DNA from: DRGV01 sp018903055 [NCBI: bacterium]
Lineage (GTDB): Bacteria; UBP18; UBA7526
DNA length: 18,213 nt
Direction of reading: 5' to 3'
NCBI GenBank assembly: GCA_018903055.1
Contig: JAHIPW010000029.1
Span: 1-18,213 of the forward strand
Shown: piece by piece, positions 1,309 to 18,057 of the stretch
Position numbering within the stretch: the first letter of the stretch is position 1
Layout of the letters: every line of letters starts with the position of its first letter
The notes under the pieces: generated by a model
What the model was told of the DNA's origin: nothing
The model's database searches: none
Seen by the model: only the letters and a program-made list of their open reading frames with translations
Made by a program: the position numbers and the translations under genes

Positions 1309-1890
1309 ATGGCTAATCTATTTATAATCTTCTTAAGCGCCCTCTTGGTAAACAACTTTGTCCTAACGAGGTTCTTGGGCATCTGTCCCTTCTTGGGCGT
1401 TTCCCGAAAGGTGGAGACCGCTTTGGGGATGGGCATGGCAGTGATCTTCGTCATGACCTTAGCCTCTTTAGTGACCAACCTCGTATATAATCTTGTTTTA
1501 ATTCCCCTGAACCTCTTATTCCTACATATCATTACCTTCATCCTGGTCATCGCCTCCTTGGTTCAGCTGGTTGAGATCGTCTTAGAGAAGATTAGCCCTG
1601 CACTATATCGCGCTTTAGGAATCTATCTCCCTTTGATTACTACCAACTGTGCCATCCTGGGTCTTGCCTTATTGAACGTCATCAAAGGACATAGTGCCAT
1701 TCAGGCCATTTTCTTTGGTCTGGGAGCAGGGATTGGCTTTGCCCTGGCTCTTCTCATCATGGCCGGAATAAGAGAGAGGTTAGAGTTAGCAGATGTTCCA
1801 GTAGCCCTACAGGGAGCAGCCATTACCCTTATCACGGCTGGGCTTTTATCCCTGGCCTTTATGGGTTTCAGTGGATTGGTAAAGTTATAA
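1309..1890 (+). CDS. rnfA: RnfA, electron transport complex membrane subunit A
   Basis: RnfA is the second membrane subunit of the RnfA/RnfE pair, related to NqrE/NqrD. I chose ATG 1309 because AAGGAG lies at 1298-1303 with 5-nt spacing. A TTG at 1291 would add six residues that lie in repeat DNA and overlap the Shine-Dalgarno sequence. The protein has 193 residues, the usual size. Six or so membrane helices are visible. The conserved cysteines are in [12 protein letters not shown] (Cys26) and [14 protein letters not shown] (Cys114), equivalent to RnfE Cys25 and Cys108 and expected to ligate the shared cluster. The gene lies 26 bp after rnfE, so the two are surely cotranscribed. A 146-bp inverted-repeat element follows it, before rnfB. 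Confidence 0.95.
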
Positions 1891-1897
1891 AAGACCA

Positions 1898-2043
1898 AAG
1901 TTCTAAGTTGTTGGTAGTTGGGTTAGGGTAAGGTAGTAGGTTTGGTAGTTAGGTAATGGTTAGGTTTAAAGACCAACTACTTAACCCAACAACCAAACTA
2001 ATAACCTAACCTTAACCCTAACCGAATAACGAAGCGTTTTAAT
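1898..2043. repeat. TTAGGG-type long imperfect inverted repeat, copy 1
   Basis: The left half is G/T-rich (GTTAGGGTAAGG-like) and the right half is its C/A-rich imperfect complement (CCTTAACCCTAACC-like). Together they could form a hairpin with roughly 45 bp of imperfect stem around a short centre near 1967-1973. A second copy lies at 13902-14047 in the same orientation, with the same overall length and roughly 85-90% identity by eye. Both copies sit between genes of an operon, here rnfA and rnfB. Confidence 0.85.
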
Positions 2044-4531: not shown

Positions 4532-4573
4532 GCCCCGAAGGACAAGCCTACGGGGCAGGCAGGTGAGAAAGTG
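4525..4573. repeat. 49-nt identical repeat with hairpin, copy 1
   Basis: These 49 nt are identical to 10461-10509. The core is a hairpin with arms CCCCGAAGG and CCTACGGGG (8 of 9 paired) around an ACAAG loop, followed by a GTGAGAAAGTG-type tandem. In this copy the repeat supplies the last codon and stop of amrB. Beyond it, 4574-4715 is further degenerate repeats: GCAAAATGCAAAATTA and TACTTACTACTTATTAC types. Confidence 0.85.
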
Positions 4574-5837: not shown

Positions 5838-6929
5838 ATGATTAAAAAACTTTTACCCCGTTGGAGCCTTCCCTTAACGATGTTTCATAGAGGGATACAG
5901 GATTTAGTGAGGACTATAGTAGTGTCTATCTCAAAACAAGATGTTTTGCAAAGTCTCCAACGGGGTTTACTTTTTATCTTAACACTTGCTCTTTTGATAA
6001 GTGGGTGTGGTCAAAGATTCCCAAGCAAGAAAGAGTTCTTGATGGATACTGAGGTAGAGATTATCCTACCTCAAGGAAGTGAGGAGGATTTTACTGCGGC
6101 CTTCAATGAAATAAGAAGAGTTGAGAAATTAATGGATGTCCATAATCCAGAAAGCGAAATCTCTCGGATTAATCGGTTGGGCAGTAAAGAAGCGATTAAA
6201 GTTAGTAAGGAAATTTTTGGGGTTTTGAAAGAGGCGCTGGAATATAGTAGGCTTACCTCTGGGGCCTTTGATGTGAGCATTCGTCCTTTGTCCCATTTGT
6301 GGGGAGAAAAAGGAAAGTTAAAAGAAGTTCCTGAAGTAAGAGAGATAGAGGAGAGGTTACTTCTGGTAAATTACAAAAATATCATCTTGAATGAAAGAAA
6401 TCAGACGGTTGAGTTTAAGAGAGAGGGAATGGCTATAGATCTGGGAGGGGTTGCCAAGGGGTATGCCCTGGATTGTGCCATAATGGTTTTAAAAGAAAGG
6501 GGAGTTAAAGAGGCGCTGATCAATGCTGGTGGAGATATCAGGGTAACGGGAAAAAGGAATTGGAGGGTTGGTCTACAGCACCCCAGAAAAGAGGACGAAG
6601 TTTTAGCAATAATCAAATTAAAAGACCAGGCGATTGCCACCTCTGGTGATTATCAAAGATACTTTATCAAGGAGGGTAAGAGATATCACCACATCATTAA
6701 TCCCGAGACTGGTTACCCTGCCGTAGAATGTATGAGTGTCACCATTATCGGGCCAAGTGCTATTCAGACAGACATCCTTGCTACCGGAGTCTTTATCTTG
6801 GGCCCGGAGAAGGGAATGAAGTTGATAGAATTCCTGGAAAATATTGAAGGAATAATTGTCGATGTTCAAGGGAAAATTCTTCTCTCTTCCGGCCTGAAAG
6901 GCAAACTACAAATCAGCCCCAAAATCTAA
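5838..6929 (+). CDS. apbE: ApbE-family FAD:protein FMN transferase lipoprotein, with a palindromic insert in its signal peptide
   Basis: ApbE moves FMN from FAD onto Thr/Ser of target proteins such as RnfG and RnfD, outside the cytoplasmic membrane. Family motifs in order (residues of this start): MDTEVEI (~68), GAFDVSIRPLSHLW (~142-155), DLGGVAKGYA (201-210), NAGGD (229-233), TSGDYQRYF (268-276), HHIINPETGYP (284-294) and DILAT with the metal-binding Asp/Thr (312-316). ATG 5838 follows GAGGT at 5829-5833. A lipobox LISGC puts the lipidated Cys at 57, unusually far in. Residues 7-43 are encoded by a 111-bp palindromic element (5856-5966). Without it the N-terminus is a standard lipoprotein signal, MIKKLLLFILTLALLISGC. 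An in-frame TTG at residue 37 could also give a short signal peptide. Confidence 0.94.
   Translation: MIKKLLPRWSLPLTMFHRGIQDLVRTIVVSISKQDVLQSLQRGLLFILTLALLISGCGQRFPSKKEFLMDTEVEIILPQGSEEDFTAAFNEIRRVEKLMDVHNPESEISRINRLGSKEAIKVSKEIFGVLKEALEYSRLTSGAFDVSIRPLSHLWGEKGKLKEVPEVREIEERLLLVNYKNIILNERNQTVEFKREGMAIDLGGVAKGYALDCAIMVLKERGVKEALINAGGDIRVTGKRNWRVGLQHPRKEDEVLAIIKLKDQAIATSGDYQRYFIKEGKRYHHIINPETGYPAVECMSVTIIGPSAIQTDILATGVFILGPEKGMKLIEFLENIEGIIVDVQGKILLSSGLKGKLQISPKI
5856..5966. mobile_element. In-frame CCCC...GGGGT palindromic element in apbE (111 bp)
   Basis: The outer arms CCCCGTTGGAG (5856-5866) and CTCCAACGGGG (5955-5965) are perfect complements; A5855 and T5966 extend the pairing. Inside is a smaller hairpin, CAAAACA/TGTTTTG, at about 5934-5950. 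TTA lies on both sides (5853-5855 and 5967-5969), consistent with a 3-bp target duplication. The 111-bp length (37 codons) keeps apbE in frame. The codon phase (CCC CGT TGG) differs from the other copies. In the CGTTAGA arm of other copies this phase would read a TAG stop; here the arm has TGG. Confidence 0.82.
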
Positions 6930-6934
6930 GAAAA

Positions 6935-7012
6935 GAGGTCTCTGAAAAACCTTCAGAGCCCTCTAATTAGAGATTTCTGACTTTTTCAGAAATCTCGAAA
7001 AAAGACTTGACA
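6935..7012. promoter_or_regulatory. Double-hairpin plus TTGACA cassette, copy 1
   Basis: Two hairpins, CTCTGAA/TTCAGAG (6940-6958) and GAGATTTCTGA/TCAGAAATCTC with loop CTTTT (6970-6996), are followed after 10 nt by TTGACA (7007-7012). The same order of sequences recurs at 17977-18063. This copy lacks a T-run after the second hairpin, so it is a poor intrinsic terminator for apbE. TTGACAT (7007-7013) is also half of an inverted repeat with ATGTCAA (7026-7032), which looks like an operator upstream of the small gene at 7063. No good -10 box sits at 16-18 nt; TAAAAT and TATAGT at 7035-7045 are too far. Confidence 0.55.
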
Positions 7013-7062
7013 TTTTAGAAAAAGTATGTCAAACTAAAATATAGTAAAGGAGGTGTTTTGAA

Positions 7063-7302
7063 ATGGAGAAACTCGGTATCCTGGCGAATGTCAGTCTCTA
7101 TCGCATTCTGGGGATCCTCTTCTTAGTGGTTGGTGCTCTTTATATCCTTTCTCCCCGGACGATGAAGAAGATCGATGAGGTAGGAAAGAAGCTTTTATGG
7201 CAGGATGATTGGAGCATTACCCATCGCATCGGCTTTGGAATCTTCTTTCTCATCGTGGGATTACTACTCTGCTATACAGGCTTCGTTCTTCTGAAGAGAT
7301 AA
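7063..7302 (+). CDS. Small two-helix membrane protein of unknown function
   Basis: I do not recognise this 79-residue protein. It has two hydrophobic segments, about residues 14-29 (ILGILFLVVGALYIL) and 57-76 (IGFGIFFLIVGLLLCYTGFVLL), joined by a charged loop with SPRTMKKIDEVGKKLLWQDDW. It is therefore probably a small inner-membrane hairpin. It looks like a real gene: an excellent AAAGGAGG lies at 7046-7053 with 9-nt spacing to the ATG, a repeated regulatory cassette lies upstream and a strong terminator follows. It stands alone between the apbE gene and a convergent parvulin gene. Nothing in the sequence gives a function. Confidence 0.8.
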   Translation: MEKLGILANVSLYRILGILFLVVGALYILSPRTMKKIDEVGKKLLWQDDWSITHRIGFGIFFLIVGLLLCYTGFVLLKR

Positions 7303-7320
7303 AAGAAAAAAATAAAAAAC

Positions 7321-7347
7321 AAAAGCCCCCCGTAAAGGGGGGCTTTT
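7321..7347. terminator. Strong bidirectional intrinsic terminator
   Basis: This is a perfect 11-bp stem, AAAAGCCCCCC (7321-7331) with GGGGGGCTTTT (7337-7347), and a GTAAA loop. T-rich DNA follows on the plus strand and an A-rich run precedes it, giving a U-tract on the minus strand as well. It lies between the convergent genes ending at 7302 (+) and 7401 (-) and can serve both. Confidence 0.95.
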
Positions 7348-7400
7348 CTATTATTTATTCCTGTTTAGTCTCTTAGAGAATACACCTCCTTAGATGCTTG

Positions 7401-8798
7401 CTATCTAATGGGGTGAATCTTGATCTTTGCCTTTTGATATAAATTCCGGTACCACTGGCTATAGACAAGTGCTTTCTTCTTTTGAATAAAGTCTTTAGTG
7501 AATGCTTCTTTCTCTTCGGCAAATCTTTCCTTATCCATTCCTTTTCGTTTAATCAGTCTGATGATGTAATAGCCATCCCTTCCCCTTAGAGGGCCCTTCA
7601 CTTCACCCACTTTGAGACCAAGGGCCTCCTCTTCAATTTCCTGGGGCAAATTACTTTCCCCACGTTTAAAAAGACCAGTTTCCTTAATCTCCACAGAGAG
7701 CCTTTTAGCTAAAACTCTTAAATCCTCTTTTTCTATTTCTTTTGTTACTTCCCGAGTTCTTTCTTTAGTAATCCTCCATCCCTTTTCTTCCTTTAAAGTT
7801 CTTTTTATCTTTTCTTTTACTTCATCCAATGGAGGAATGTAAGATTCTTTCTTTTCCTCTAACTTGATGATGTGGTAACCGAACCTGCTTTTCACCGGCC
7901 GAGATATTTGCCCTTCTTCCAGACCAAAAGCCACCCCCTCAAACTCCTCCACCATATCCCCCCTCTTAAAGAAGCCCAGATCTCCACCTTTTTCTTTGCT
8001 GGGACACTGGGAGAATTCTTTTGCCAACTTTTCAAAATCCTCTTCCTTCCCCAACCTCCTCGTTATCTCTTTTATTCTCTCACGAGCCTCCCTTCCCTTA
8101 ATCAGGACATGTCTTACCCGTATTTTCTCCGGCACGCGATAACTTTCTTTATTCTCCTGATAATACTTCTCTATTTCCTTCTGATCAATCCTCACCTCTT
8201 TAGCAGGCGCTATCAGAAGATATTCAATCTCTATCTCTTCATTCCTTTTTAGATATTCATCCCGGATCTCCTTTTCGCTCATCTCTATCCCATCCAGAAT
8301 TAGATTCTTCAATTTGGTAATAGAGATTTCCTTACTCATCTCCTCTTCAAACTTTTGGGGAGTATATCCCAACCAATCCAGGAGGGCAAAGTAGGTCTCT
8401 TTATCAAACTTTCCCTCTTTCTGAAAGGCCGGGTAGCTTCTTATCTCTTCCCTCAATTCTTGATCACTCACCCCGATTCTCTTCCTCTTCACTTCCTGGA
8501 GCAGAAGTTCTCTTTCGATTAAGATATTTAGTGCCGCTTCCTCCAGGTTTAAAATCTTTGCTATTTCTTCGTTGAATTTGTCTCCCATCCCCTCTCTCAT
8601 CTCCCGATAGAGCCTCTCTACTTCCTTATAATAGGCCTCTCCTGTAATCCCTTTTCCATTCACGGCGGCAACCAGGTTTAATCTCCTCTCTTTCAATCCC
8701 ACTAAGGCTCCAGCCAGGATGAAGGTTGGGATAACTAAGATGATAGTACCCCATAAAATCATTCGGGTTTTTTTACGCATGGCCTTGAGCATTACCAT
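7401..8798 (-). CDS. Membrane-anchored SurA/PpiD-like peptidyl-prolyl isomerase (parvulin)
   Basis: This is a foldase of the SurA/PpiD type that probably helps exported proteins fold outside the cytoplasmic membrane. The start is the ATG at 8798, set by AGGAGG at 8805-8810 with 6-nt spacing; an upstream ATG at 8816 would put that site in the coding region. Length is 465 residues. It has a basic N-terminus and a membrane anchor (residues ~13-35), then a SurA_N-like helical chaperone region with AAVNGKGITGEAYYKEV (45-61) and ERELLLQEVKRKRIGVS. The parvulin domain spans ~224-314: RVRHVLIKG, GGDLGFFKRGDMVEEFE and SRFGYHIIKL. A second, degenerate parvulin-like segment (GLKVGEVKGPLRGRDGYYII) lies near the C-terminus. 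The anchor and layout fit PpiD better than free SurA. Confidence 0.9.
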   Translation of the reverse strand: MVMLKAMRKKTRMILWGTIILVIPTFILAGALVGLKERRLNLVAAVNGKGITGEAYYKEVERLYREMREGMGDKFNEEIAKILNLEEAALNILIERELLLQEVKRKRIGVSDQELREEIRSYPAFQKEGKFDKETYFALLDWLGYTPQKFEEEMSKEISITKLKNLILDGIEMSEKEIRDEYLKRNEEIEIEYLLIAPAKEVRIDQKEIEKYYQENKESYRVPEKIRVRHVLIKGREARERIKEITRRLGKEEDFEKLAKEFSQCPSKEKGGDLGFFKRGDMVEEFEGVAFGLEEGQISRPVKSRFGYHIIKLEEKKESYIPPLDEVKEKIKRTLKEEKGWRITKERTREVTKEIEKEDLRVLAKRLSVEIKETGLFKRGESNLPQEIEEEALGLKVGEVKGPLRGRDGYYIIRLIKRKGMDKERFAEEKEAFTKDFIQKKKALVYSQWYRNLYQKAKIKIHPIR

Positions 8799-9004
8799 AG
8801 TCCGCCTCCTCACCATAGTTGTTGGAATAGTCAGTGATCGGTGATCAGCAATAATTGGTTTACGGTTTACGGTGTACGGTTTACGGTGAAAAACCGCCTC
8901 TCGTTTTCACTCGAGACTGAGCGATCCTGAATGAAATGAAGGACGGTAAACGGTAAACAGCGACCCCGATGAATCGGGGGAGCGGGTAAACGGTTAACCT
9001 TAAG

Positions 9005-9024
9005 TAACACGGCTCACCGTGTTA
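9005..9024. promoter_or_regulatory. Palindrome at the predicted transcription start (possible operator)
   Basis: TAACACGG (9005-9012) and CCGTGTTA (9017-9024) form a perfect 8-bp inverted repeat with CTCA between. It abuts the -10 box of the minus-strand promoter. It could be a repressor site or a 5' hairpin of the transcript. Confidence 0.45.
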
Positions 9025-9052
9025 TTATATCTTCTTCTTAAAATTTTTGCAA
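9024..9052 (-). promoter_or_regulatory. Sigma-70-type promoter for the parvulin gene
   Basis: On the minus strand, TTGCAA (9047-9052) and a perfect TATAAT (9024-9029) are separated by exactly 17 nt. Transcription should start near 9017. That gives a long leader of ~220 nt to the gene start at 8798. The predicted start falls inside an 8-bp palindrome (9005-9024). Confidence 0.8.
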
Positions 9053-9143
9053 GAAAAATAATAATGATTGTTATGCTTTCAATATCATTGTAATCTGTTT
9101 AGCCATCACTGTAATCCCGTGACAATTTTAGAAAATAAAAAAC

Positions 9144-9172
9144 TTGCTAATTTCAAAAACCTCTGATATTAT
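9144..9172 (+). promoter_or_regulatory. Sigma-70-type promoter for the mreB operon
   Basis: TTGCTA (9144-9149) and TATTAT (9167-9172) are separated by 17 nt and lie in an AT-rich stretch. The predicted start near 9179 leaves a ~190-nt leader containing the double hairpin at 9233-9269, ahead of mreB at 9372. Confidence 0.7.
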
Positions 9173-9371
9173 AGCAAGTAACAATTGACATTGAGCAAGT
9201 AGAAAGTAGAAAAGTAAGTTTTGAAGCAATCGAGCCCCGCTTAAGCGGGATCCCGCCACAGGCGGGGCTATCGAGCTATCTAGTATCCAGCATCAAGGAT
9301 CCAGAATCTGTGATCTGTGCTAATCTGTAATCAATCTGTGAAAATCTGCGTTTGATAAAAGGGAGGAAGAG

Positions 9372-10412
9372 ATGTTATTCGATTGGTTTTTAGGGTTATT
9401 CTCCAATGATATGGCCATCGACTTAGGGACGGCCACCACCCTGGCCTATATCAAGGGCCAGGGAATTATTTTAAGAGAGCCCTCTGTGGTGGCCATCCTG
9501 AAAGATACGGGCAAGGTAGTGGCGGTGGGAAGCGATGCCAAGAGAATGCTGGGAAGGACCCCGGCCAATATCGTGGCCATTCGGCCCATGAGGGATGGGG
9601 TGATTGCGGACTTCGAGATTACAGAAGAGATGCTGCGCTACTTCATCACTAAGGCCCACAAGAGGAGGGCATTGGTGAGACCCCGGATCATCGTCTGTGT
9701 CCCTTTAGGGATAACAGGGGTGGAGAAGAGGGCGGTAAGGGACGCGGCCCAGGCAGCAGGCGCCCGGGAGGTTTATTTAATAGAAGAGCCCATGGCCGCC
9801 GCTATTGGGGCCGGACTTCCCGTTGCCGAACCCGCGGGGAATATGATCGTAGATATCGGCGGGGGAACGACTGAGGTAGCAGTCATCTCATTGGGAGGGA
9901 TTGTCTGTCATTGCTCGATTAGGGTGGCCGGGAATGAGATGGATGAGGCCATTATGGCCTATCTTAAGAAGACCTATAACCTGGCTATTGGAGAGCATAC
10001 TGCAGAGGAGATCAAGATAAGGGTAGGAAGCGCCTGCCCCTTAAAGGAGGAGCTCACCCTGGAGGTGAAGGGAAGGGACCTGATAGCTGGCCTCCCAAAG
10101 ACAGTGACCATTACCTCTCAAAAGATAAGGGAAGCAATACAAGAACCCTTAGGGGCCATTGTGGAAGCGGTGAAGAACACCCTGGAGCGCACCCCACCAG
10201 AACTATCCGCAGATATCATGGAGAGGGGAATTATCTTGGCAGGCGGAGGAGCCCTGCTCCGGGGAATAGATAGGCTACTCTCTGAAGAGACCGGGCTTCC
10301 TGTTAATCTCGACGAGGATCCCTTATCTACGGTTGTTCTGGGAACGGGCAAGGTCCTGGATGAATTGGATACCCTAAAGATGGTTCTTGCCCCTGCCCAT
10401 CGCCGCTACTGA
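9372..10412 (+). CDS. mreB: MreB, rod-shape-determining actin homologue
   Basis: MreB forms ATP-dependent filaments on the inner face of the membrane that direct lateral cell-wall synthesis. The actin-fold motifs are present: phosphate-1 loop [13 protein letters not shown] (residues 15-27), [14 protein letters not shown] (136-149), phosphate-2 loop [11 protein letters not shown] (160-170), and the adenosine motif [12 protein letters not shown] (289-300). Length is 346 residues, normal. The N-terminal [10 protein letters not shown] is hydrophobic and could act as the membrane-binding helix or loop. ATG 9372 follows GGGAGG at 9361-9366. It is the first gene of mreB-mreC-mreD-mrdA-rodA. It is higher in GC than the surrounding spacers and contains no palindromic insert, unlike the three genes from mreD to rodA. 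Confidence 0.98.
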
Positions 10413-10712
10413 GACGCAGATTTACGCAGATCCAATCACAGATGACCGCAGATAAGCAGGAAAGTGAGCCCCGAAGGACAAGCCTACGGGGCAGGCAGGT
10501 GAGAAAGTGGGAAAGTGAGAAAAGAGAAAATAAGAGAATACGAGAATACGTAAATAAGAGAATGAAGCAAGAGAAGGCAAGACGAGAAGAAACTTACCAA
10601 CTTATTTTCTTATTAACTTATTAACTTGCTTTTGTTTGAGGCTTGCGACTTGAGGCTTGAAGCATACTTTATTACTTATTCACTTGTTAACTTGTCAACG
10701 GCAAACTATATA
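10413..10712. repeat. mreB-mreC gap filled with several repeat types
   Basis: This 300-bp gap is a patchwork. CGCAGATTTACGCAGAT units lie at 10413-10456. The 49-nt repeat (10461-10509) is identical to 4525-4573. GAGAATACG/AAGAG purine repeats follow, then TTATTAACTTGC repeats, GAGGCTTGCGACTTGAGGCTTGAAGC (in parts, 10638-10665) and CACTTGTTAACTTGTCAAC. A 60-codon frame at 10442-10624 is made only of this repeat DNA. No separate promoter is obvious. Confidence 0.6.
10461..10509. repeat. 49-nt identical repeat with hairpin, copy 2
   Basis: It is identical over 49 nt to 4525-4573, with the same CCCCGAAGG/CCTACGGGG hairpin. Here it is fully intergenic. Confidence 0.85.
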
Positions 10713-11429
10713 ATGAAAAAAAAAGTTTTTGTTTTAGTCATACTCATTTTAATATCCCTCTTTCTTTTATTCTCTAAAAGGCGGGCTCCCAAATTAGAGG
10801 AGGGTCTGACCGCTGTCATTTATCTGCCGGCAAAGGTTCTGGCCAAGACCACTTCTCATCCCAGGGAGACCTTATCCCAGGGGGAAGAGAGGCTCCTTTT
10901 GGAACTTGAAAGGGAGAATGAACGCCTGAGGAGTCTCCTTAAATTAAGAGAGAGACTTACCCACCGAAGCATGGCCGCTTTGGTTATCGGTCGGGAGCCC
11001 ACTAATTGGTTCAACTCTATCCTTCTCGATAAGGGAAGGGAAGAGGGGGTAGAAGAGAATTTCGTAGTAATTACTCCAGAGGGTCTGGTGGGAAGGGTGA
11101 ATAAAGTCCACCGGAATTCCTGTCAGGTTCTGCTCATCACTGACCTGGAGAGCGAGATTGGTGCTCTCATAGAGAGGTCTCGAGTTCAGGGGGTGCTCCA
11201 GGGAAGAAAGAGAGGCCTGATTTTAAAGTACCTCCCCTTAGGAGCAGATGTCAGGGAAGGAGATGTGATTACCACCTCTGGCCTGGAAGAGGGCCTCTTT
11301 CCCAAGGGTCTCGTCATAGGAAGAATAAAAAGAATAGAGGCTTCTCATCCTCAGGATCTCTTCCTGGAGATAATCGTTACCCCCAAGGCCAACCTGAGCA
11401 GATTAGAAGAAGTCCTGATCCTTAAGTGA
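10713..11429 (+). CDS. mreC: MreC, rod-shape-determining protein
   Basis: MreC is a bitopic membrane protein that links MreB to the periplasmic wall-synthesis enzymes. ATG 10713 begins MKKKVFVLVILILISLFLLF, a short basic tail and a membrane helix (residues 5-20). A coiled coil follows (about 53-82, GEERLLLELERENERLRS). The two-part beta domain then runs from residue ~88 to the end, with GREPTNWFNSILLDKGREEGVEENF, VVITPEGLVGRV and TTSGLEEGLFPKGLVIGRI, all family-typical. Length is 238 residues. A longer frame from 10626 only adds repeat DNA. No clear Shine-Dalgarno sequence precedes the ATG, which is odd for this operon. The stop TGA overlaps the GTG start of mreD. Confidence 0.94.
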   Translation: MKKKVFVLVILILISLFLLFSKRRAPKLEEGLTAVIYLPAKVLAKTTSHPRETLSQGEERLLLELERENERLRSLLKLRERLTHRSMAALVIGREPTNWFNSILLDKGREEGVEENFVVITPEGLVGRVNKVHRNSCQVLLITDLESEIGALIERSRVQGVLQGRKRGLILKYLPLGADVREGDVITTSGLEEGLFPKGLVIGRIKRIEASHPQDLFLEIIVTPKANLSRLEEVLILK

Positions 11430-12025
11430 ACCCCGCCCCTTTTACTCGGAAAAATCCTTTCGTAGCAGAAAGGTGTAGGAGTAAACCCCGCCCCTTCTTC
11501 TCCCCCAGTCCCAACTGCAGGCAAGGAAGAGGCGGGATAAAGAGAATAATTTTTTTCTTTCTTCTCCTCTTTCTGGTTACTCTTCAGGCCACTCTCCTGA
11601 ATGGACTGAACATCTTAGGAATAAAGCCCGACTTCCTTTTCATCCTAGTTATTTTTATAGCTCTCCATAAGGGGCCCATCTCTGGGGCCTGGTGCGGTTT
11701 CCTGGCTGGGATTTTGTTAGACCTCTTCTCCTTTGCCCCCTTAGGGACCAATGCCCTCTCCAAAACAGCCCTGGGATTTTTACTGGGCGCAGTAGCACCC
11801 TTCCTATACTTCGAAGCCCCCTTCATCCAGGGGCTCCTTCTATTTATAGCCATGCTTTTAGAGGGAATTTTTCTCTTTATTCTTCTCTCCTCTCTCCATC
11901 TTGCCCTTCCCTTCTCCCATTCATTTCTTCACATCATCCTCCCCACTTCTCTCTATACCTCTCTTCTTACCCCCCTCCTCTTCTATGTCTTCAAGAAGAC
12001 AGGGGTCAGCGATTATGCCTTTTGA
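11426..12025 (+). CDS. mreD: MreD, rod-shape-determining protein, with tandem palindromic inserts at its N-terminus
   Basis: MreD is a small integral membrane protein of the elongasome. The core begins at about residue 39 (IKRIIFFFLLLFLVTLQA) and has five or so membrane helices, with the family segments KPDFLFILVIFIALHKGPISG and GFLAGILLDLFSFAPLGTNAL. The GTG start at 11426 overlaps the mreC stop (GTGA). No other usable start lies before the first helix. The N-terminal tail of about 37 residues (NPAPFTRKNPFVAER and onward) comes from two palindromic elements in tandem at 11431-11538. Without them the gene would read GTG AAG AGA ATA, giving MKRIIFFFLLLFLV, a normal MreD start. Length is 199 residues against a usual ~160-170. 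It overlaps mrdA by 11 bp. Confidence 0.9.
   Translation: MNPAPFTRKNPFVAERCRSKPRPFFSPSPNCRQGRGGIKRIIFFFLLLFLVTLQATLLNGLNILGIKPDFLFILVIFIALHKGPISGAWCGFLAGILLDLFSFAPLGTNALSKTALGFLLGAVAPFLYFEAPFIQGLLLFIAMLLEGIFLFILLSSLHLALPFSHSFLHIILPTSLYTSLLTPLLFYVFKKTGVSDYAF
11431..11482. mobile_element. Palindromic element 1 of mreD tandem (52 bp)
   Basis: It aligns almost base for base with the 51-bp element in mrdA (12026-12076): CCCCGC, then CC(T/C)TTTACTCGGAA, then GTA(G/A)CAGAAAGG. The right end is eroded (GGTGTAGGAGT against GGGGCGGGGT). An inner hairpin CCTTTC/GAAAGG is intact. The flanks are GAA (11428-11430) and AAA (11483-11485), two of three bases matching. It encodes PAPFTRKNPFVAERCRS. Confidence 0.72.
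11486..11538. mobile_element. Palindromic element 2 of mreD tandem (53 bp)
   Basis: It runs from CCCCG to GGGAT. The arms CCCGCCCCTTC (11487-11497) and GAAGAGGCGGG (11526-11536) pair at 10 of 11 positions. It is flanked exactly by AAA (11483-11485) and AAA (11539-11541). Elements 1 and 2 together, with their 3-bp copies, add 111 bp, a multiple of three, although neither does alone. Confidence 0.7.
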
Positions 12026-13862
12026 CCCCGCACCCTTTACTCGGAAGCGTTTCTTTGTAACAGAAAGGGGCGGGGTTGACCTCCGGCCTCCTTCAACGAG
12101 GAGGGAATTTCGTTTCCGCCTCTTATTCGTTACCGTTATCATATGTCTCTTGTTTCTTATCCTCTTTTTGAGACTCTGGGTCCTGGAGATTTTTCAGGGT
12201 GAGAAGTTCACGCGCTTAGCAGAGGATAATAGTATTAGACTCCTGGCCTATCCCGCCCCTCGGGGCCTCATCTACGATCGAAAGGGAAGGGTTTTGGCCA
12301 AAAGTCGTCTCTCCTTCTCCATCACCATCCATCCATGGAATCTGAGTGAGGAGATATTGAATGAGACCATCGACCACATCGGTCCCATAATTGGGATGAG
12401 GAAAGAGGAGATCAGGGAAAGAATAGCGAAGTGGCCCACTCCCTTCTCAAGCGTTCTATTGAAAGAGGATGTCGGCTTGGAAGTGGCGACTAAGATTCTG
12501 GAGAGGAAGGGGAGTTTAGCAGGGATGGATGTGAAGACCCGGCCCCTGCGCTACTATCCGGATGGGGAGCTTCTGGCTCCGGTCCTGGGATACTTAGGGG
12601 AGATCGGCAGGGAGGAGCTGCGGACCTTGAGGAGCAAGGGATACTCCTTGGGGGATAGGATGGGCCAGGATGGATTAGAGAAGGTCTATGATGGGTATCT
12701 CAGGGGTGAGGATGGGGGCTGGCAGGTTCAGATCAGTAACCAGGGTCAGAGGATAGGGGTCATCGGCTATAGAAAGCCTATCCCCGGGAATGACCTCATA
12801 CTCACCATTGATAAGAGAATGCAGGAAGTGGCCTGGGATTCTCTGAGAGGCCGTTCAGGAGCCATCGTGGTCCTGGATCCCAGAACAGGGGAGGTCCTGG
12901 CCCTGGTGAGTTCCCCAACCTTCGATCCCAACCTCTTTGTCCCCAGAATCTCGAAGACGAAGTGGTCCTCCTTAAAGGAGGATCCCCTACATCCCCTGAC
13001 CAATCGTGCCATCCAGGGTCAGTATGCCCCGGGTTCGATCTTCAAGGTAATTACTGCTCTTGCTGCGCTGGAGAAAGGACTTATCTCCAGAGATGAGAGG
13101 TTCTCCTGCTCGGGAACCTTCCCCTTTAAGGATCGGGTCTTCAGGTGCTGGAGGAAGGAGGGGCATGGGGAATTGAATATTAAAGAAGCCATCATTCATT
13201 CCTGCGACATATTCTTCTATCAACTGGGCCTGAGGGTGGGGGTGGATAACCTGGTGGAACTCTCCCAAAAGTTTGGCCTGGACCAATCAACCAGGATAGG
13301 CCTTCCCCATGAGGAAAAAGGTCTTCTGCCCACCAAGCGATGGAGGAAGGATTCTCTGGGCAGGGGATGGTATGAAGGAGATACCGTCAACCTCTCCATA
13401 GGTCAGGGGTATCTCTTAGTCACCCCTTTACAGATGGCAAGTCTAATGAGTGCTGTCGCTAATGGAGGGAGGCTATATGAACCCCAATTGGTTAAGGAAA
13501 TCATCTCTTCAGAGGGGGAGACAATATGGAGAATGGGGCCTCGCTTGGTAAGAGAGATTAATTTAGAGAGAGAGACCATTGAATTCCTGAGGGAATCCCT
13601 CTTTGGTGTGGTCAATGAACTAGGAACTGGTTGGCGGGCAAAGATAGAGGGAGTAGGAGTAGCGGGGAAGACGGGTACCGCTGAAAACCCCTTAGGAGAG
13701 GACCATGCCTGGTTCATTGGCTTCGCCCCCCACAAAGAACCAGAGATAGCGCTCGCCGTTCTTATAGAGCATGGAGGGATGGGAGGGGAGGTTGCCGCTC
13801 CCATTGCCAAAAAAATATTCGAAGCATACTTTGACCAGCGAACAGTAACCAGCGAACAGTAA
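12015..13862 (+). CDS. mrdA: Penicillin-binding protein 2 (elongasome transpeptidase)
   Basis: PBP2 is the class B transpeptidase that cross-links new peptidoglycan during elongation, as the partner of RodA. ATG 12015 overlaps the end of mreD; a longer frame from 11901 lies wholly within mreD. It has 615 residues: a cytoplasmic tail, a membrane helix (~35-54), the pedestal with APRGLIYDRKGRVLA (~81-95), then the transpeptidase domain. The catalytic SxxK is SIFK with Ser341. The second motif is SCD (Ser396), and KTG is in GVAGKTGTAE (Lys552). The 51-bp element at 12026-12076 encodes PAPFTRKRFFVTERGGV-like sequence in the tail; without it the start reads MPFDLRPPSTRREF. The C-terminal RTVTSEQ comes from an ACCAGCGAACAGTA repeat. 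Confidence 0.96.
   Translation: MPFDPAPFTRKRFFVTERGGVDLRPPSTRREFRFRLLFVTVIICLLFLILFLRLWVLEIFQGEKFTRLAEDNSIRLLAYPAPRGLIYDRKGRVLAKSRLSFSITIHPWNLSEEILNETIDHIGPIIGMRKEEIRERIAKWPTPFSSVLLKEDVGLEVATKILERKGSLAGMDVKTRPLRYYPDGELLAPVLGYLGEIGREELRTLRSKGYSLGDRMGQDGLEKVYDGYLRGEDGGWQVQISNQGQRIGVIGYRKPIPGNDLILTIDKRMQEVAWDSLRGRSGAIVVLDPRTGEVLALVSSPTFDPNLFVPRISKTKWSSLKEDPLHPLTNRAIQGQYAPGSIFKVITALAALEKGLISRDERFSCSGTFPFKDRVFRCWRKEGHGELNIKEAIIHSCDIFFYQLGLRVGVDNLVELSQKFGLDQSTRIGLPHEEKGLLPTKRWRKDSLGRGWYEGDTVNLSIGQGYLLVTPLQMASLMSAVANGGRLYEPQLVKEIISSEGETIWRMGPRLVREINLERETIEFLRESLFGVVNELGTGWRAKIEGVGVAGKTGTAENPLGEDHAWFIGFAPHKEPEIALAVLIEHGGMGGEVAAPIAKKIFEAYFDQRTVTSEQ
12026..12076. mobile_element. In-frame CCCC...GGGGT palindromic element in mrdA (51 bp)
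   Basis: The left arm ACCCCGCACCCTTT (12025-12038) pairs with AAAGGGGCGGGGT (12064-12076) apart from one bulged base. It is flanked exactly by TGA (12023-12025) and TGA (12077-12079). The left TGA is the stop codon of mreD. The 51 bp equal 17 codons of mrdA. It is closely related to 11431-11482. Confidence 0.82.
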
Positions 13863-14106
13863 CCAGTTGAAAGGGAATTAAAGTCCAAAGTCCAAGGTCC
13901 AAAGTCCTAAGTCGTTGGTAGTTAGGTTAGGGTAAGATAGTGGGTTTAGTAGTTAGGTAAGGGTTAGGTGTTTAAGACCAACTACCTAACCCAACAACTA
14001 AACCAACAACTTAACCCTAACCCTAACCAAATAACAAAGTCTTTAATTTTGGACGTTGGACTTCGGACATAGGACATTGGACCCGAGCGACTAAAAGGAG
14101 CGAGTA
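13863..14106. repeat. mrdA-rodA gap: GTCC repeats around long hairpin copy 2
   Basis: This 244-bp gap holds an AGTCCAAAGTCCAAGGTCC array (13880-13908), the long TTAGGG-type hairpin (13902-14047) and a GGACGTTGGACTTCGGACA-type array (14050-14083). The rodA ribosome-binding site AAAAGGAG comes next, at about 14094-14101. No gene is visible. Confidence 0.65.
13902..14047. repeat. TTAGGG-type long imperfect inverted repeat, copy 2
   Basis: It has the same orientation and overall length as 1898-2043, with roughly 85-90% identity by eye. The left half has GGTTAGGGTAAG and the right half CCTAACCCTAACC, able to pair around a centre near 13971-13976. Many differences from copy 1 are C/T or A/G transitions. 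Confidence 0.85.
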
Positions 14107-15294
14107 ATGTTTGATAAAAGACTCTTAAAGAACTTCGATTGGCCACTACTGGCCATTACCCTTCTCTTATGTCTAATAGGGATACTGACCATCTATAGTA
14201 CAGCAAAGACATTGGATACTCCCTATCACCTGAAGCAACTCGCCTCTCTGGGTCTGGGCTTGGTTGTCTGCGTCATTGTTTTCTCCATAGATTATCATAA
14301 GTGGTCCAGATGGGCCCCCTTCCTTTATCTGGGAAGCCTCCTGCTTCTCTTCTTTCTCTTCTTTTTTAGTCCCCCAGCATTAGGTGTCCGCCGCTGGCTC
14401 TCTATTGGCCCCCTAACCTTTCAACCCTCAGAAATTTCCAAGGTAGCAACCTTCCTTCTCCTCGCCAGATACCTAAGCCCCGTTAGAGGTAATCCGTCCC
14501 TTTCGGGGTCGGATGCCTCCCGACGTTCCATCGGAAGGACCTCTAACGGGATAAACCGAAAGGAGAAAGCAGATATTCTCATCCCCCTGGCCATTGTCGC
14601 TCTACCCCTTTTTCTAATAGCCAGCCAGCCTGATCTAGGAACCGCCCTTCTCTTTCTGCCTTTGGGATTGGTTCTGGTCTATCTCGCTGGTACCAGGACA
14701 AAGCATCTTTTTCTTTTAATCGGTTTCTTTCTACTTGCTTCTCCCTTAGGATGGTTCTTCTTACACGGCTATCAGAAAAGGAGGATCCTCTCCTTCTTAA
14801 ATCCAACGAGGGACCCCCTGGGTGCGGGCTACAATATCATCCAGTCCAAAATCGCTATCGGCTCTGGTCGGCTCCTGGGGAAAGGATTTCTAAACAGCAC
14901 CCAGAGTAATTTTTTACCCGGACATCATACAGATTTCATCTTTTCCTCCTTTGCTGAGGAGTGGGGCCTTTTGGGATCCCTTTTCCTCATTCTTCTCTAC
15001 CTCTTCATCATCATCCGGGCAATTGAAATAAGCCTTCATGCTAAGGATAGATTGGGATCTCTCTTAGCAGCAGGGATTGCTACCATCCTGGCCAGTCAGG
15101 TAATAATTAATATCGCCATGGCAACCGGGATCCTGCCTGCTACGGGCTTGCCCCTGCCTTTCTTAAGCTATGGAGGGAGCCACTTGGTGATGAGTCTCGT
15201 CTCCATTGGCTTTTTACTCAATATTAGAATGAGAAGATTCATGTTTAAGAACAGCTACAGGCTTCAGGCTACAGGCTATAGGTTTGAAGCTTGA
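14107..15294 (+). CDS. rodA: RodA, SEDS peptidoglycan glycosyltransferase, with an inserted cytoplasmic-loop segment
   Basis: RodA polymerises lipid II into glycan strands in complex with PBP2. The 395-residue protein has about ten membrane helices. SEDS landmarks are FQPSEISKVATFLLLARYL (105-123), SQPDLGTALLFLPLGL (173-188), GHHTDFIFSSFAEEWG (272-287) and PLPFLSYGGSHLVMSL (near residue 350). Asp276 in HTDF is the likely catalytic Asp; subtracting the insert puts it at about 252, close to Asp255 of Thermus RodA. ATG 14107 has an AAAAGGAG site upstream. Residues 125-148 (PVRG...TSNG) come from a 75-bp palindromic element in a cytoplasmic loop. Without it the loop reads ARYLSRKEKADILIP. The C-terminal NSYRLQATGYRFEA is encoded by a CAGGCTACAGGCTATAGG repeat. 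Confidence 0.96.
   Translation: MFDKRLLKNFDWPLLAITLLLCLIGILTIYSTAKTLDTPYHLKQLASLGLGLVVCVIVFSIDYHKWSRWAPFLYLGSLLLLFFLFFFSPPALGVRRWLSIGPLTFQPSEISKVATFLLLARYLSPVRGNPSLSGSDASRRSIGRTSNGINRKEKADILIPLAIVALPLFLIASQPDLGTALLFLPLGLVLVYLAGTRTKHLFLLIGFFLLASPLGWFFLHGYQKRRILSFLNPTRDPLGAGYNIIQSKIAIGSGRLLGKGFLNSTQSNFLPGHHTDFIFSSFAEEWGLLGSLFLILLYLFIIIRAIEISLHAKDRLGSLLAAGIATILASQVIINIAMATGILPATGLPLPFLSYGGSHLVMSLVSIGFLLNIRMRRFMFKNSYRLQATGYRFEA
14478..14552. mobile_element. In-frame CCCC...GGGAT palindromic element in rodA (75 bp)
   Basis: The outer arms CCCGTTAGAGGT (14479-14490) and ACCTCTAACGGG (14539-14550) are perfect 12-bp complements. Two shorter hairpins lie inside (ATCCGTCCC/GGGGTCGGAT, imperfect, and a CCGA/TCGG pair), giving a three-way-junction shape. 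The flanks are AAG (14475-14477) and AAA (14553-14555). The ends encode PVRG and TSNG, in the same phase as the element at 17679. Confidence 0.82.
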
Positions 15295-15327
15295 GGCTTG
15301 CAGCTTGTGGCTTGAAGCGGAGTAGAA
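15295..15327. repeat. GCTTGAGGCTTGCAGCTTG repeat between rodA and the next gene
   Basis: This degenerate array of CTTGNGGCTTG units begins inside the end of rodA (about 15252) and runs to the ribosome-binding site CGGAG before ATG 15328. Related arrays lie at 1233-1297 and 10638-10665. Confidence 0.6.
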
Positions 15328-18009
<2,682 letters not shown>

Positions 18010-18057
18010 TCACCGTAATCAAGATTTCTGACTTTTTCAGAAATCTCTTTTTAGAAT

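What the first reader, a model, noticed from the sequence alone, without database searches (positions are those of the whole stretch)
5853..17744. Family of mobile palindromic elements inserted in-frame in five protein-coding genes
Six elements (5856-5966, 11431-11482, 11486-11538, 12026-12076, 14478-14552, 17679-17741) share a left end CCCC(G), a right end GGGGT or GGGAT, complementary arms and internal hairpins. The flanking 3 bp match on both sides: TTA/TTA, AAA/AAA, TGA/TGA and GAA/GAA exactly, GAA/AAA and AAG/AAA at two of three. The net insertion per gene is 114, 111, 54, 78 and 66 bp, all multiples of three. Deleting element plus one 3-bp copy restores a conventional protein each time. 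Rickettsia palindromic elements are the closest known concept. Here the density (five of the eight plus-strand genes from apbE to 18009) and a likely 3-bp target duplication stand out. The matches are seen; mobility is inference.
Basis: partly seen in the sequence, partly recalled or inferred. Interest (0 to 1): 0.93.

Follow-up and report, generated by a model that had tools for sequence, protein, structure and literature searches.

The report
Jumping palindromes inside protein-coding genes
Tiny palindromic DNA elements with one shared end sequence have jumped, in frame, into conserved genes of this uncultured bacterium and of bacteria from about a dozen other groups, duplicating four bases of target as they went; neither a description of them nor the enzyme that moves them was found.

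Summary
The finding is real and larger than reported. Six palindromic inserts lie in five genes of the window (apbE, mreD, mrdA, rodA, a TIGR03960 radical-SAM gene). They belong to a dispersed family with ends CCCCG...CGGGG. The target duplication is 4 bp, not 3; all 116 exact duplications found with the family's arms read YNNR. Exact: 26 of 58 elements in this genome's fetched stretches (shuffled mean 4.9), 76 of 150 in other groups (9.7), 51 of 57 in one Omnitrophota genome's stretches (10.4). Relatives show empty sites with one 4-bp copy. Of 54 elements in open frames, 53 add a multiple of three bases. The same ends occur in Patescibacteria, Omnitrophota, Planctomycetota, Cloacimonadota, Nitrospirae, Elusimicrobia and others. 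One class keeps a covarying three-way-junction fold. Four transposase families were searched in draft genomes; none explains the elements, and no autonomous copy was seen. They work like Rickettsia palindromic elements but span phyla. Extra: 5 of 68 tRNA predictions lie inside such elements, and the elements appear to sit inside other tRNA genes (software agrees for 3 of 5). Enzyme and intermediate are unknown.

The parts
5856..5965 (.). Element 1 (110 bp, arms CCCCGTTGGAG/CTCCAACGGGG) in the N-terminal region of apbE; flanks TTTA 5852-5855 and TTTA 5966-5969
   Evidence: exact 4-bp duplication; host gene ApbE PF02424 7.4e-91
11431..11481 (.). Element 2 (51 bp, left end CCCCGCCCC, decayed right end) after the start codon of mreD; left flank TGAA, right flank TAAA
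   Evidence: sequence and flanks; absent from G001, G002, G005
11486..11537 (.). Element 3 (52 bp, CCCCGCCCC...GGCGGGA) directly behind element 2 in mreD; flanks TAAA 11482-11485 and TAAA 11538-11541
   Evidence: exact 4-bp duplication; absent from G001, G002, G005; host gene MreD PF04093 4.2e-12
12026..12075 (.). Element 4 (50 bp, CCCCGCACCC...GGGGCGGGG) near the start of mrdA (PBP2); flanks TTGA 12022-12025 and TTGA 12076-12079
   Evidence: exact 4-bp duplication; host TIGR03423 3.5e-198; no such element at this place in G001, G002, G005, where the region is too diverged to read the site
14478..14551 (.). Element 5 (74 bp, three-way-junction class) inside rodA; flanks TAAG 14474-14477 and TAAA 14552-14555
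   Evidence: same-genus G001 carries a 68-bp version at the same codon with TGAG/TGAG; empty site in G002-G004
17679..17740 (.). Element 6 (62 bp, three-way-junction class) inside the TIGR03960/DUF2344 gene; flanks CGAA 17675-17678 and TGAA 17741-17744
   Evidence: absent from same-genus G001 and from G005; member of alignment A1
5838..6929 (+). apbE, host gene
11426..12025 (+). mreD, host gene
12015..13862 (+). mrdA (PBP2), host gene
14107..15294 (+). rodA, host gene
   Evidence: TIGR02210 9.3e-113
15328..18009 (+). TIGR03960 + TIGR03936 (DUF2344) radical-SAM gene, host gene

Best explanation
A family of very small, non-autonomous, palindromic insertion elements (26 to about 150 bp, rarely longer; ends CCCCG...CGGGG). 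An enzyme supplied from elsewhere joins the element to a target cut with a 4-nt stagger at YNNR; gap filling leaves the 4-bp duplication (inferred from the duplications; the enzyme was not found). With CCCCGTTAGA arms the element has a stop in one frame of each strand and can read open in the other two (encoding NPVR...SNGV or TPLE...LTG), so insertions in genes survive when element plus 4 bp is a multiple of three (shown as a bias) and fall where the protein tolerates them, such as N-termini, a gap between aligned halves of RodA, and prepilin leaders (shown for examples). The arms and, in one class, two inner hairpins stay complementary while their sequence changes (shown), so a folded form is probably what is recognised or copied (inferred). 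The family has passed between phyla (inferred from shared ends and fold).
For: Exact 4-bp duplications far above shuffled flanks in partly overlapping sets. Specificity: of 1179 inverted-repeat pairs in 427 kb, 28 of 66 that start CCCC and 2 of 8 that start TCCC carry the duplication, against 4 of the other 1105; two offset controls gave 25 matches over all pairs, 1 of them at CCCC. Empty sites: rodA in G002-G004, L026 and L048 sites in G001; presence/absence within the genus for element 6. In-frame bias: 53 of 54 and 23 of 23. Covariation: 32 compensatory cells against 7.9 shuffled, 0 of 500. Cross-phylum copies. One copy nested in another with its own CAGG/CAGG duplication (L029). At L262 the two tRNA halves give a tRNA when the element and exactly four bases are left out.
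Against: No transposase or autonomous copy found. Families searched: Y1_Tnp 0 of 6 genomes of this phylum; DDE_Tnp_1_4 3 of 22; DDE_Tnp_1 9 of 22 and 0 of 6 here; rve 8 of 23; none of the 37 loci returned for the last three shows the family's ends. About a third of the copies seen in this genome (20 of 58) have flanks that are not a duplication but pyrimidine-rich left / purine-rich right, with 0 of the opposite kind, which a simple model does not explain. The open-frame test is partly circular, because a frame must stay open to be counted. Length+4 divisible by three is also enriched outside such frames (30 of 47, 14 of 19, 59 of 113; 24 of 34). In the looser set one exact flank pair, AGGC at L051:448, is not YNNR and looks like a chance palindrome.
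Confidence: 0.85

Rival explanations
1. A folded single strand (DNA hairpin, or an RNA copied back to DNA) is the intermediate, not a double-stranded transposon with two ends. The hairpin is joined to a 4-nt staggered cut, so no separate end-pairing is needed.
For: Two identical 26-bp copies at different sites, each with an exact duplication (L282:3056 TAAA, L287:1398 TTTA): too short, on general knowledge, for two ends to be synapsed as duplex. Covarying stems. No autonomous partner seen in the draft genome with about 50 copies. tRNA genes as contents.
Against: Complementarity can also be kept by template switching at palindromes (general knowledge). Of single-strand enzymes only Y1_Tnp was searched, absent from 6 of 6 genomes; reverse transcriptases were not searched. 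Both orientations occur in genes.
Confidence: 0.3
2. Ordinary MITEs of a conventional IS whose transposase was missed, because of family choice, incomplete genomes, an IS lost at contig breaks, or an extinct IS.
For: Terminal inverted repeats, duplications of fixed length, variable interior and high copy number are MITE traits (general knowledge; MITE review PMC10969869, passages).
Against: No convincing IS-size pair of ends among 9 candidates in the loci held. In G006 the 99 ends listed pair within 131 bp, apart from five single ends, no two of which face inward on one contig. Four families negative or patchy. The same ends serve many groups while the interiors differ.
Confidence: 0.4
3. REP/REPIN elements moved by a RAYT (Y1 transposase).
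For: Short palindromes, high copy number.
Against: Y1_Tnp absent from 6 of 6 genomes of the phylum; a 4-bp target duplication is not expected of Y1 enzymes (general knowledge); insertion in genes.
Confidence: 0.03
4. Not mobile: structured RNA or terminator motifs under selection, with flank matches by chance or composition.
For: Strong folds; many copies are not in an open frame.
Against: Duplications, empty sites, in-frame insertion in unrelated genes; no Rfam match at gathering threshold in the window and only tRNAs in nine loci.
Confidence: 0.03
5. Assembly or binning artefact.
For: Nearly all named sources are metagenome assemblies.
Against: Some copies lie well inside long contigs (L067 on 534 kb, L148 on 361 kb), others inside open host genes, in records from many groups; the same rodA site is occupied in two separate genomes.
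Confidence: 0.02

Closest known systems
Rickettsia palindromic elements (RPE)
   Same: Palindromic, dispersed, inserted in frame in conserved protein genes and also in RNA genes (PMC10969869 and PMC2229807, passages read)
   Different: RPEs are given as 105-146 or about 150 bp, Rickettsia-specific, with target duplication marked unknown. Here 26 to about 150 bp, a 4-bp YNNR duplication, ends CCCCG/CGGGG, and copies in many phyla. No RPE sequence was compared.
MITEs (Correia/NEMIS, RUP, ERIC)
   Same: Short terminal inverted repeats and target duplications
   Different: No parent IS with the same ends was found; the interior is replaceable while the fold is kept. Most of the repeat elements in that review have TA at their ends (PMC2229807, passages).
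REP / REPIN with RAYT
   Same: Short palindromes in many copies
   Different: Y1 transposase absent in 6 of 6 genomes of this phylum; target duplication present.
Small dispersed repeats of cyanobacteria (SDR)
   Same: Very small mobile palindromic repeats (recalled; seen only as a citation in PMC3116915, passage)
   Different: Original paper not seen, not compared.

Membership tests
Rickettsia palindromic elements | In-frame insertion in unrelated conserved genes | tested here: met
   53 of 54 elements in open frames add a multiple of three; rodA, mrdA, mreD, apbE, TIGR03960 hosts
Rickettsia palindromic elements | Sequence membership in an RPE family / restriction to Rickettsia | not tested
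   No RPE sequence was compared; none of the record titles names Rickettsia
MITE | Terminal inverted repeats and fixed-length target duplication | tested here: met
   a few copies suggest 3 or 5 bp
MITE | Autonomous parent transposon with the same ends | tested here: not met
   limited to held loci and one element-rich genome, all draft assemblies
REP/REPIN-RAYT | Y1 (RAYT) transposase in the genome | tested here: not met
   0 of 6 genomes
IS1380-derived MITE | IS1380-type transposase (DDE_Tnp_1_4) present | tested here: not met
   3 of 22 genomes, 0 of 6 in this phylum
Known structured RNA family | Rfam match | tested here: not met
   0 in the window; only tRNAs in nine loci

The most novel reading that the evidence does not exclude
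A structure-recognised mobile element: a folded hairpin, down to 26 nt, that an unknown enzyme shared by many phyla inserts with a 4-nt stagger. It tolerates free change and even exchange of its inner hairpins, captures tRNA genes, and acts as a cross-phylum source of short in-frame protein inserts (about 10 to 38 residues).
Probability: 0.28. Interest if true: 0.95.

Novelty: new variant of a known kind. Interest (0 to 1): 0.86.

Why it matters
Protein-coding palindromes are reported from Rickettsia and Wolbachia. A family with a strict target rule, empty sites, and one genome where 51 of 57 copies keep exact duplications makes the mechanism testable. It also shows a route by which the same short peptide module enters conserved proteins across phyla, including the cleavage motif of pilin-like proteins. 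The unknown enzyme would be a new insertion tool able to place tens of base pairs without a cargo gene.

Tried and rejected
REP/RAYT: rejected for this phylum. IS1380, chosen because recalled traits (CC ends, 4-bp duplication) fitted: rejected. DDE_Tnp_1: present in 9 of 22 genomes, but the family's ends are at none of the loci returned; one of the two DDE_Tnp_1 loci in the most element-rich genome lies at a contig start that reads GAGGCTGTCC (the IS1182 likeness and that this is an IS end are recalled/inferred). rve: 8 of 23 genomes, none in G006; no family ends at the 12 loci returned. IS-size pairs of ends with a duplication: 9 candidates, none around a recognisable transposase; their longest frames were only read by eye. 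Contig ends as hints to a repeated IS: one pair of contig ends overlaps, nothing else. Integron attC: considered because of GTT/AAC cores, but the order is inverted relative to attC and the seventh base varies; rejected by inspection (recalled consensus). Literature: searches listed no description of this element among the titles and abstract starts I saw; only open-licence papers are held, and several lists were cut. The Rickettsia paper PMC186582 is not held.

Full report
OBSERVATION. The six palindromes are in the sequence. With boundaries set at the four C/G of the arms, the flanks are TTTA|TTTA (apbE), TGAA|TAAA and TAAA|TAAA (two neighbouring elements behind the mreD start codon), TTGA|TTGA (mrdA), TAAG|TAAA (rodA) and CGAA|TGAA (TIGR03960 gene). 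Host genes were confirmed with Pfam and NCBIfam.

GENOME-WIDE. The genome (G000; 1,085,295 bp, 191 contigs, 85% complete) holds 75 ends ACCCCGTTRGA against 2 for the pattern read backwards. I fetched 47 stretches around hits; they are chosen for elements, so they give no density. In them and the window, 84 palindromes with 12-bp arms starting CCCC were found; 31 have identical 4-bp flanks, against a shuffled mean of 4.0 and a maximum of 12 in 1000. With a stricter finder (two arm types, [CT]CCC[GA]TTRGA and [CT]CCC[GA]C[AC]CC) 26 of 58 are exact, shuffled mean 4.9, maximum 12 in 2000; in relatives 12 of 25, mean 1.7, maximum 7. Specificity: over 427 kb of this genome and its relatives, 1179 inverted-repeat pairs with 9-bp arms were listed; 28 of 66 that start CCCC and 2 of 8 that start TCCC have the duplication, 4 of the other 1105 do. 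Two offset controls gave 25 matches in all, 1 of them at CCCC.

TARGET RULE. Over this genome, its relatives, other groups and viral contigs, 116 elements have exact duplications. Their first base is T (104) or C (12), their fourth A (102) or G (14), without exception. The 51 exact ones of the Omnitrophota stretches also fit; some of those copies are in both sets. In the looser set one of 31, AGGC at L051:448, does not fit. Some copies suggest 3- or 5-bp duplications (for example L104 TGA, L090 TGAAA; read by eye).

EMPTY SITES. Only six genomes of the host phylum are held; all six carry the family. rodA: G000 and same-genus G001 carry an element at the same codon (74 and 68 bp, the second hairpin differing); G002-G004 read ...TAAG|CC without it, and G005 lacks it too. 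The insert falls between two well-aligned halves of RodA (query 133 to 159; structure 8tj3, residues 138 to 142). Element 6: present in G000, absent in G001 and G005. L026:3359: the empty allele in G001 has one TAAA. L048:2099: the empty allele in G001 has one TGAA; there the insert is the element plus about 20 extra bases (read by eye; the printed alignment of that site is poor). The mreD inserts are absent from G001, G002 and G005; at mrdA the region is too diverged to read the site. Two further sites (L048:1338, L036:3863) also lie in diverged regions and were not readable. The apbE insert was not compared.

FRAME. Counting elements with at least 15 open codons before, 40 after and 120 in all: 11 in this genome, 6 in relatives, 37 in other groups; 53 of 54 have length plus 4 divisible by three. 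The criterion favours in-frame copies by construction. Outside such frames the fraction is still above one third (30 of 47, 14 of 19, 59 of 113). In the Omnitrophota stretches: 23 of 23, and 24 of 34 outside. By a text pattern the translated inserts are NPVR...SNGV-like in 36 and TPLE...LTG-like in 17, one other. In four elements of three records (L060 twice, Jorgensenbacteria; L088, Phycisphaerae; L098, Omnitrophica) the end LTG plus the flanking TTTA rebuilds the sequence G-FTL-E; Pfam finds the N_methyl pilin motif directly behind the insert in three of the four proteins, one of them below the curated cut-off.

SPREAD. Record titles name Patescibacteria of many kinds, Omnitrophota, Phycisphaerae and other Planctomycetota, Cloacimonadota, Bacteroidota, Nitrospirae, Nitrospinota, Deltaproteobacteria/Syntrophaceae, KSB1, Riflebacteria, Ratteibacteria, Stahlbacteria/WOR-3 and Elusimicrobia. 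Of 122 elements of this pattern, 64 of the 121 with flanks are exact, shuffled mean 9.2, maximum 18 in 1000; with the wider finder 76 of 150, mean 9.7, maximum 20. Prevalence: 27 of 379 genomes in the phylum of a Kaiserbacteria genome, 68 of 384 in the phylum of Omnitrophica UBA1562, 1 of 395 in the phylum of a Bacteroidetes genome, that one being the centre itself. The centres were chosen because they carry elements and are counted. The backward control was 0 in the rows. Viral contigs: 6 stretches in the IMG/VR scan; 2 of 8 elements there are exact.

FOLD. One class (62-80 bp) folds as a 13-bp stem holding two hairpins. On 13 distinct 62-mers from the host family of genomes 99.1% of cells pair, 11 of 27 pairs change on both sides, 32 such cells against 7.9 in shuffles, 0 of 500; further pair types, 24 against 20.1, were reached by 14 of 500. 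The structure was read from these sequences, which favours it. A covariance model (15 sequences, two of them from other phyla) gives 22 places above 45 bits in 100 of the 116 far loci (16 loci were not given to it); elements of other classes score roughly 25-37 through their arms. Beyond the two training members these lie in Omnitrophota, several Patescibacteria, Phycisphaerae, Nitrospirae, Riflebacteria and Elusimicrobia records.

THE MOST COPY-RICH GENOME. G006 (UBA1562) holds 49 and 50 ends CCCCGTTAGAAAY. They pair within 131 bp, apart from five single ends, no two of which face inward on one contig, so no autonomous copy with these ends is seen; one broken at contig ends would be missed. 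In 40 stretches, 51 of 57 elements have exact duplications, shuffled mean 10.4, maximum 21. Most are 53 bp. Two identical 26-bp elements sit at different exact duplications.

ENZYME. Not found; see Tried and rejected. The six genomes of the host phylum lack Y1_Tnp, DDE_Tnp_1 and DDE_Tnp_1_4 matches; two have one rve hit each. The six are 53-93% complete.

tRNA GENES. Of 68 tRNA predictions in the held loci (some loci overlap), 5 lie inside element arms: Leu and Lys in L012, Met in L032, Val in L042, Met in L262. All 5 elements look, by eye, as if they sit inside another tRNA gene. Test: with the element and up to eight bases on each side left out, ARAGORN calls a tRNA across the junction for 3 of 5: Lys (ctt, as inside), Met in L262 (cat, as inside, and only when exactly four bases are left out, which is the TGAG duplication) and an uncertain one in L032; none for Leu in L012 and Val in L042, whose outer genes by eye also carry a second element; 0 of 40 control sites. 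I have no mechanism for this nesting.

VERDICT. Mobility with a 4-bp YNNR duplication is shown as well as sequence comparison allows; in-frame retention by selection is strongly supported; horizontal spread is inferred; the enzyme and the intermediate are open. It works like Rickettsia palindromic elements, but membership in that family was not tested by sequence.

Noticed in passing
L012:4091-4244, L012:4401-4505, L032:977-1083, L042:209-317, L262:1484-1614: Elements that carry a complete tRNA gene and lie, by eye in all 5 and by ARAGORN in 3, inside another tRNA gene, in two cases with the same anticodon.
   Followed up: partly
This genome, 20 of 58 elements (for example L009:1816, L034:2976, L036:3863): Copies whose flanks are not duplicated but pyrimidine-rich on the left and purine-rich on the right (such as TTCA...CAGG); the opposite arrangement is 0 of 58 here and 3 of 150 elsewhere. 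Unexplained.
   Followed up: partly
window 4533-4563 and 10469-10499: A second intergenic repeat, CCCCGAAGGACAAGCCTACGGGGCAGGCAGG, with TGAG on both sides; 7 places with CCTACGGGGCAGG in the window and held stretches. Possibly a related element family.
   Followed up: no
window about 6968-6998 and 18022-18050: TTTCTGACTTTTTCAGAAATCTC hairpins behind genes, 4 in the window and held stretches; look like terminators or another repeat.
   Followed up: no
window 1890-2040 and 13880-14040: Long intergenic runs of near-repeats of the type GGTTAGGGTAAGG...CCTAACCCAAC; CACAGATTAACACAGATC-like text elsewhere; degenerate intergenic repeats, seen by eye.
   Followed up: no
L060:2942-6200, L088:2236, L098:6383: Elements inserted at the prepilin cleavage motif in records of three phyla, rebuilding G-FTL-E.
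   Followed up: partly
rodA of G000 and G001 (window 14478-14551; L216:4452): The same insertion carries different second hairpins in two genomes of one genus, both in frame: inner hairpins may be exchanged.
   Followed up: partly
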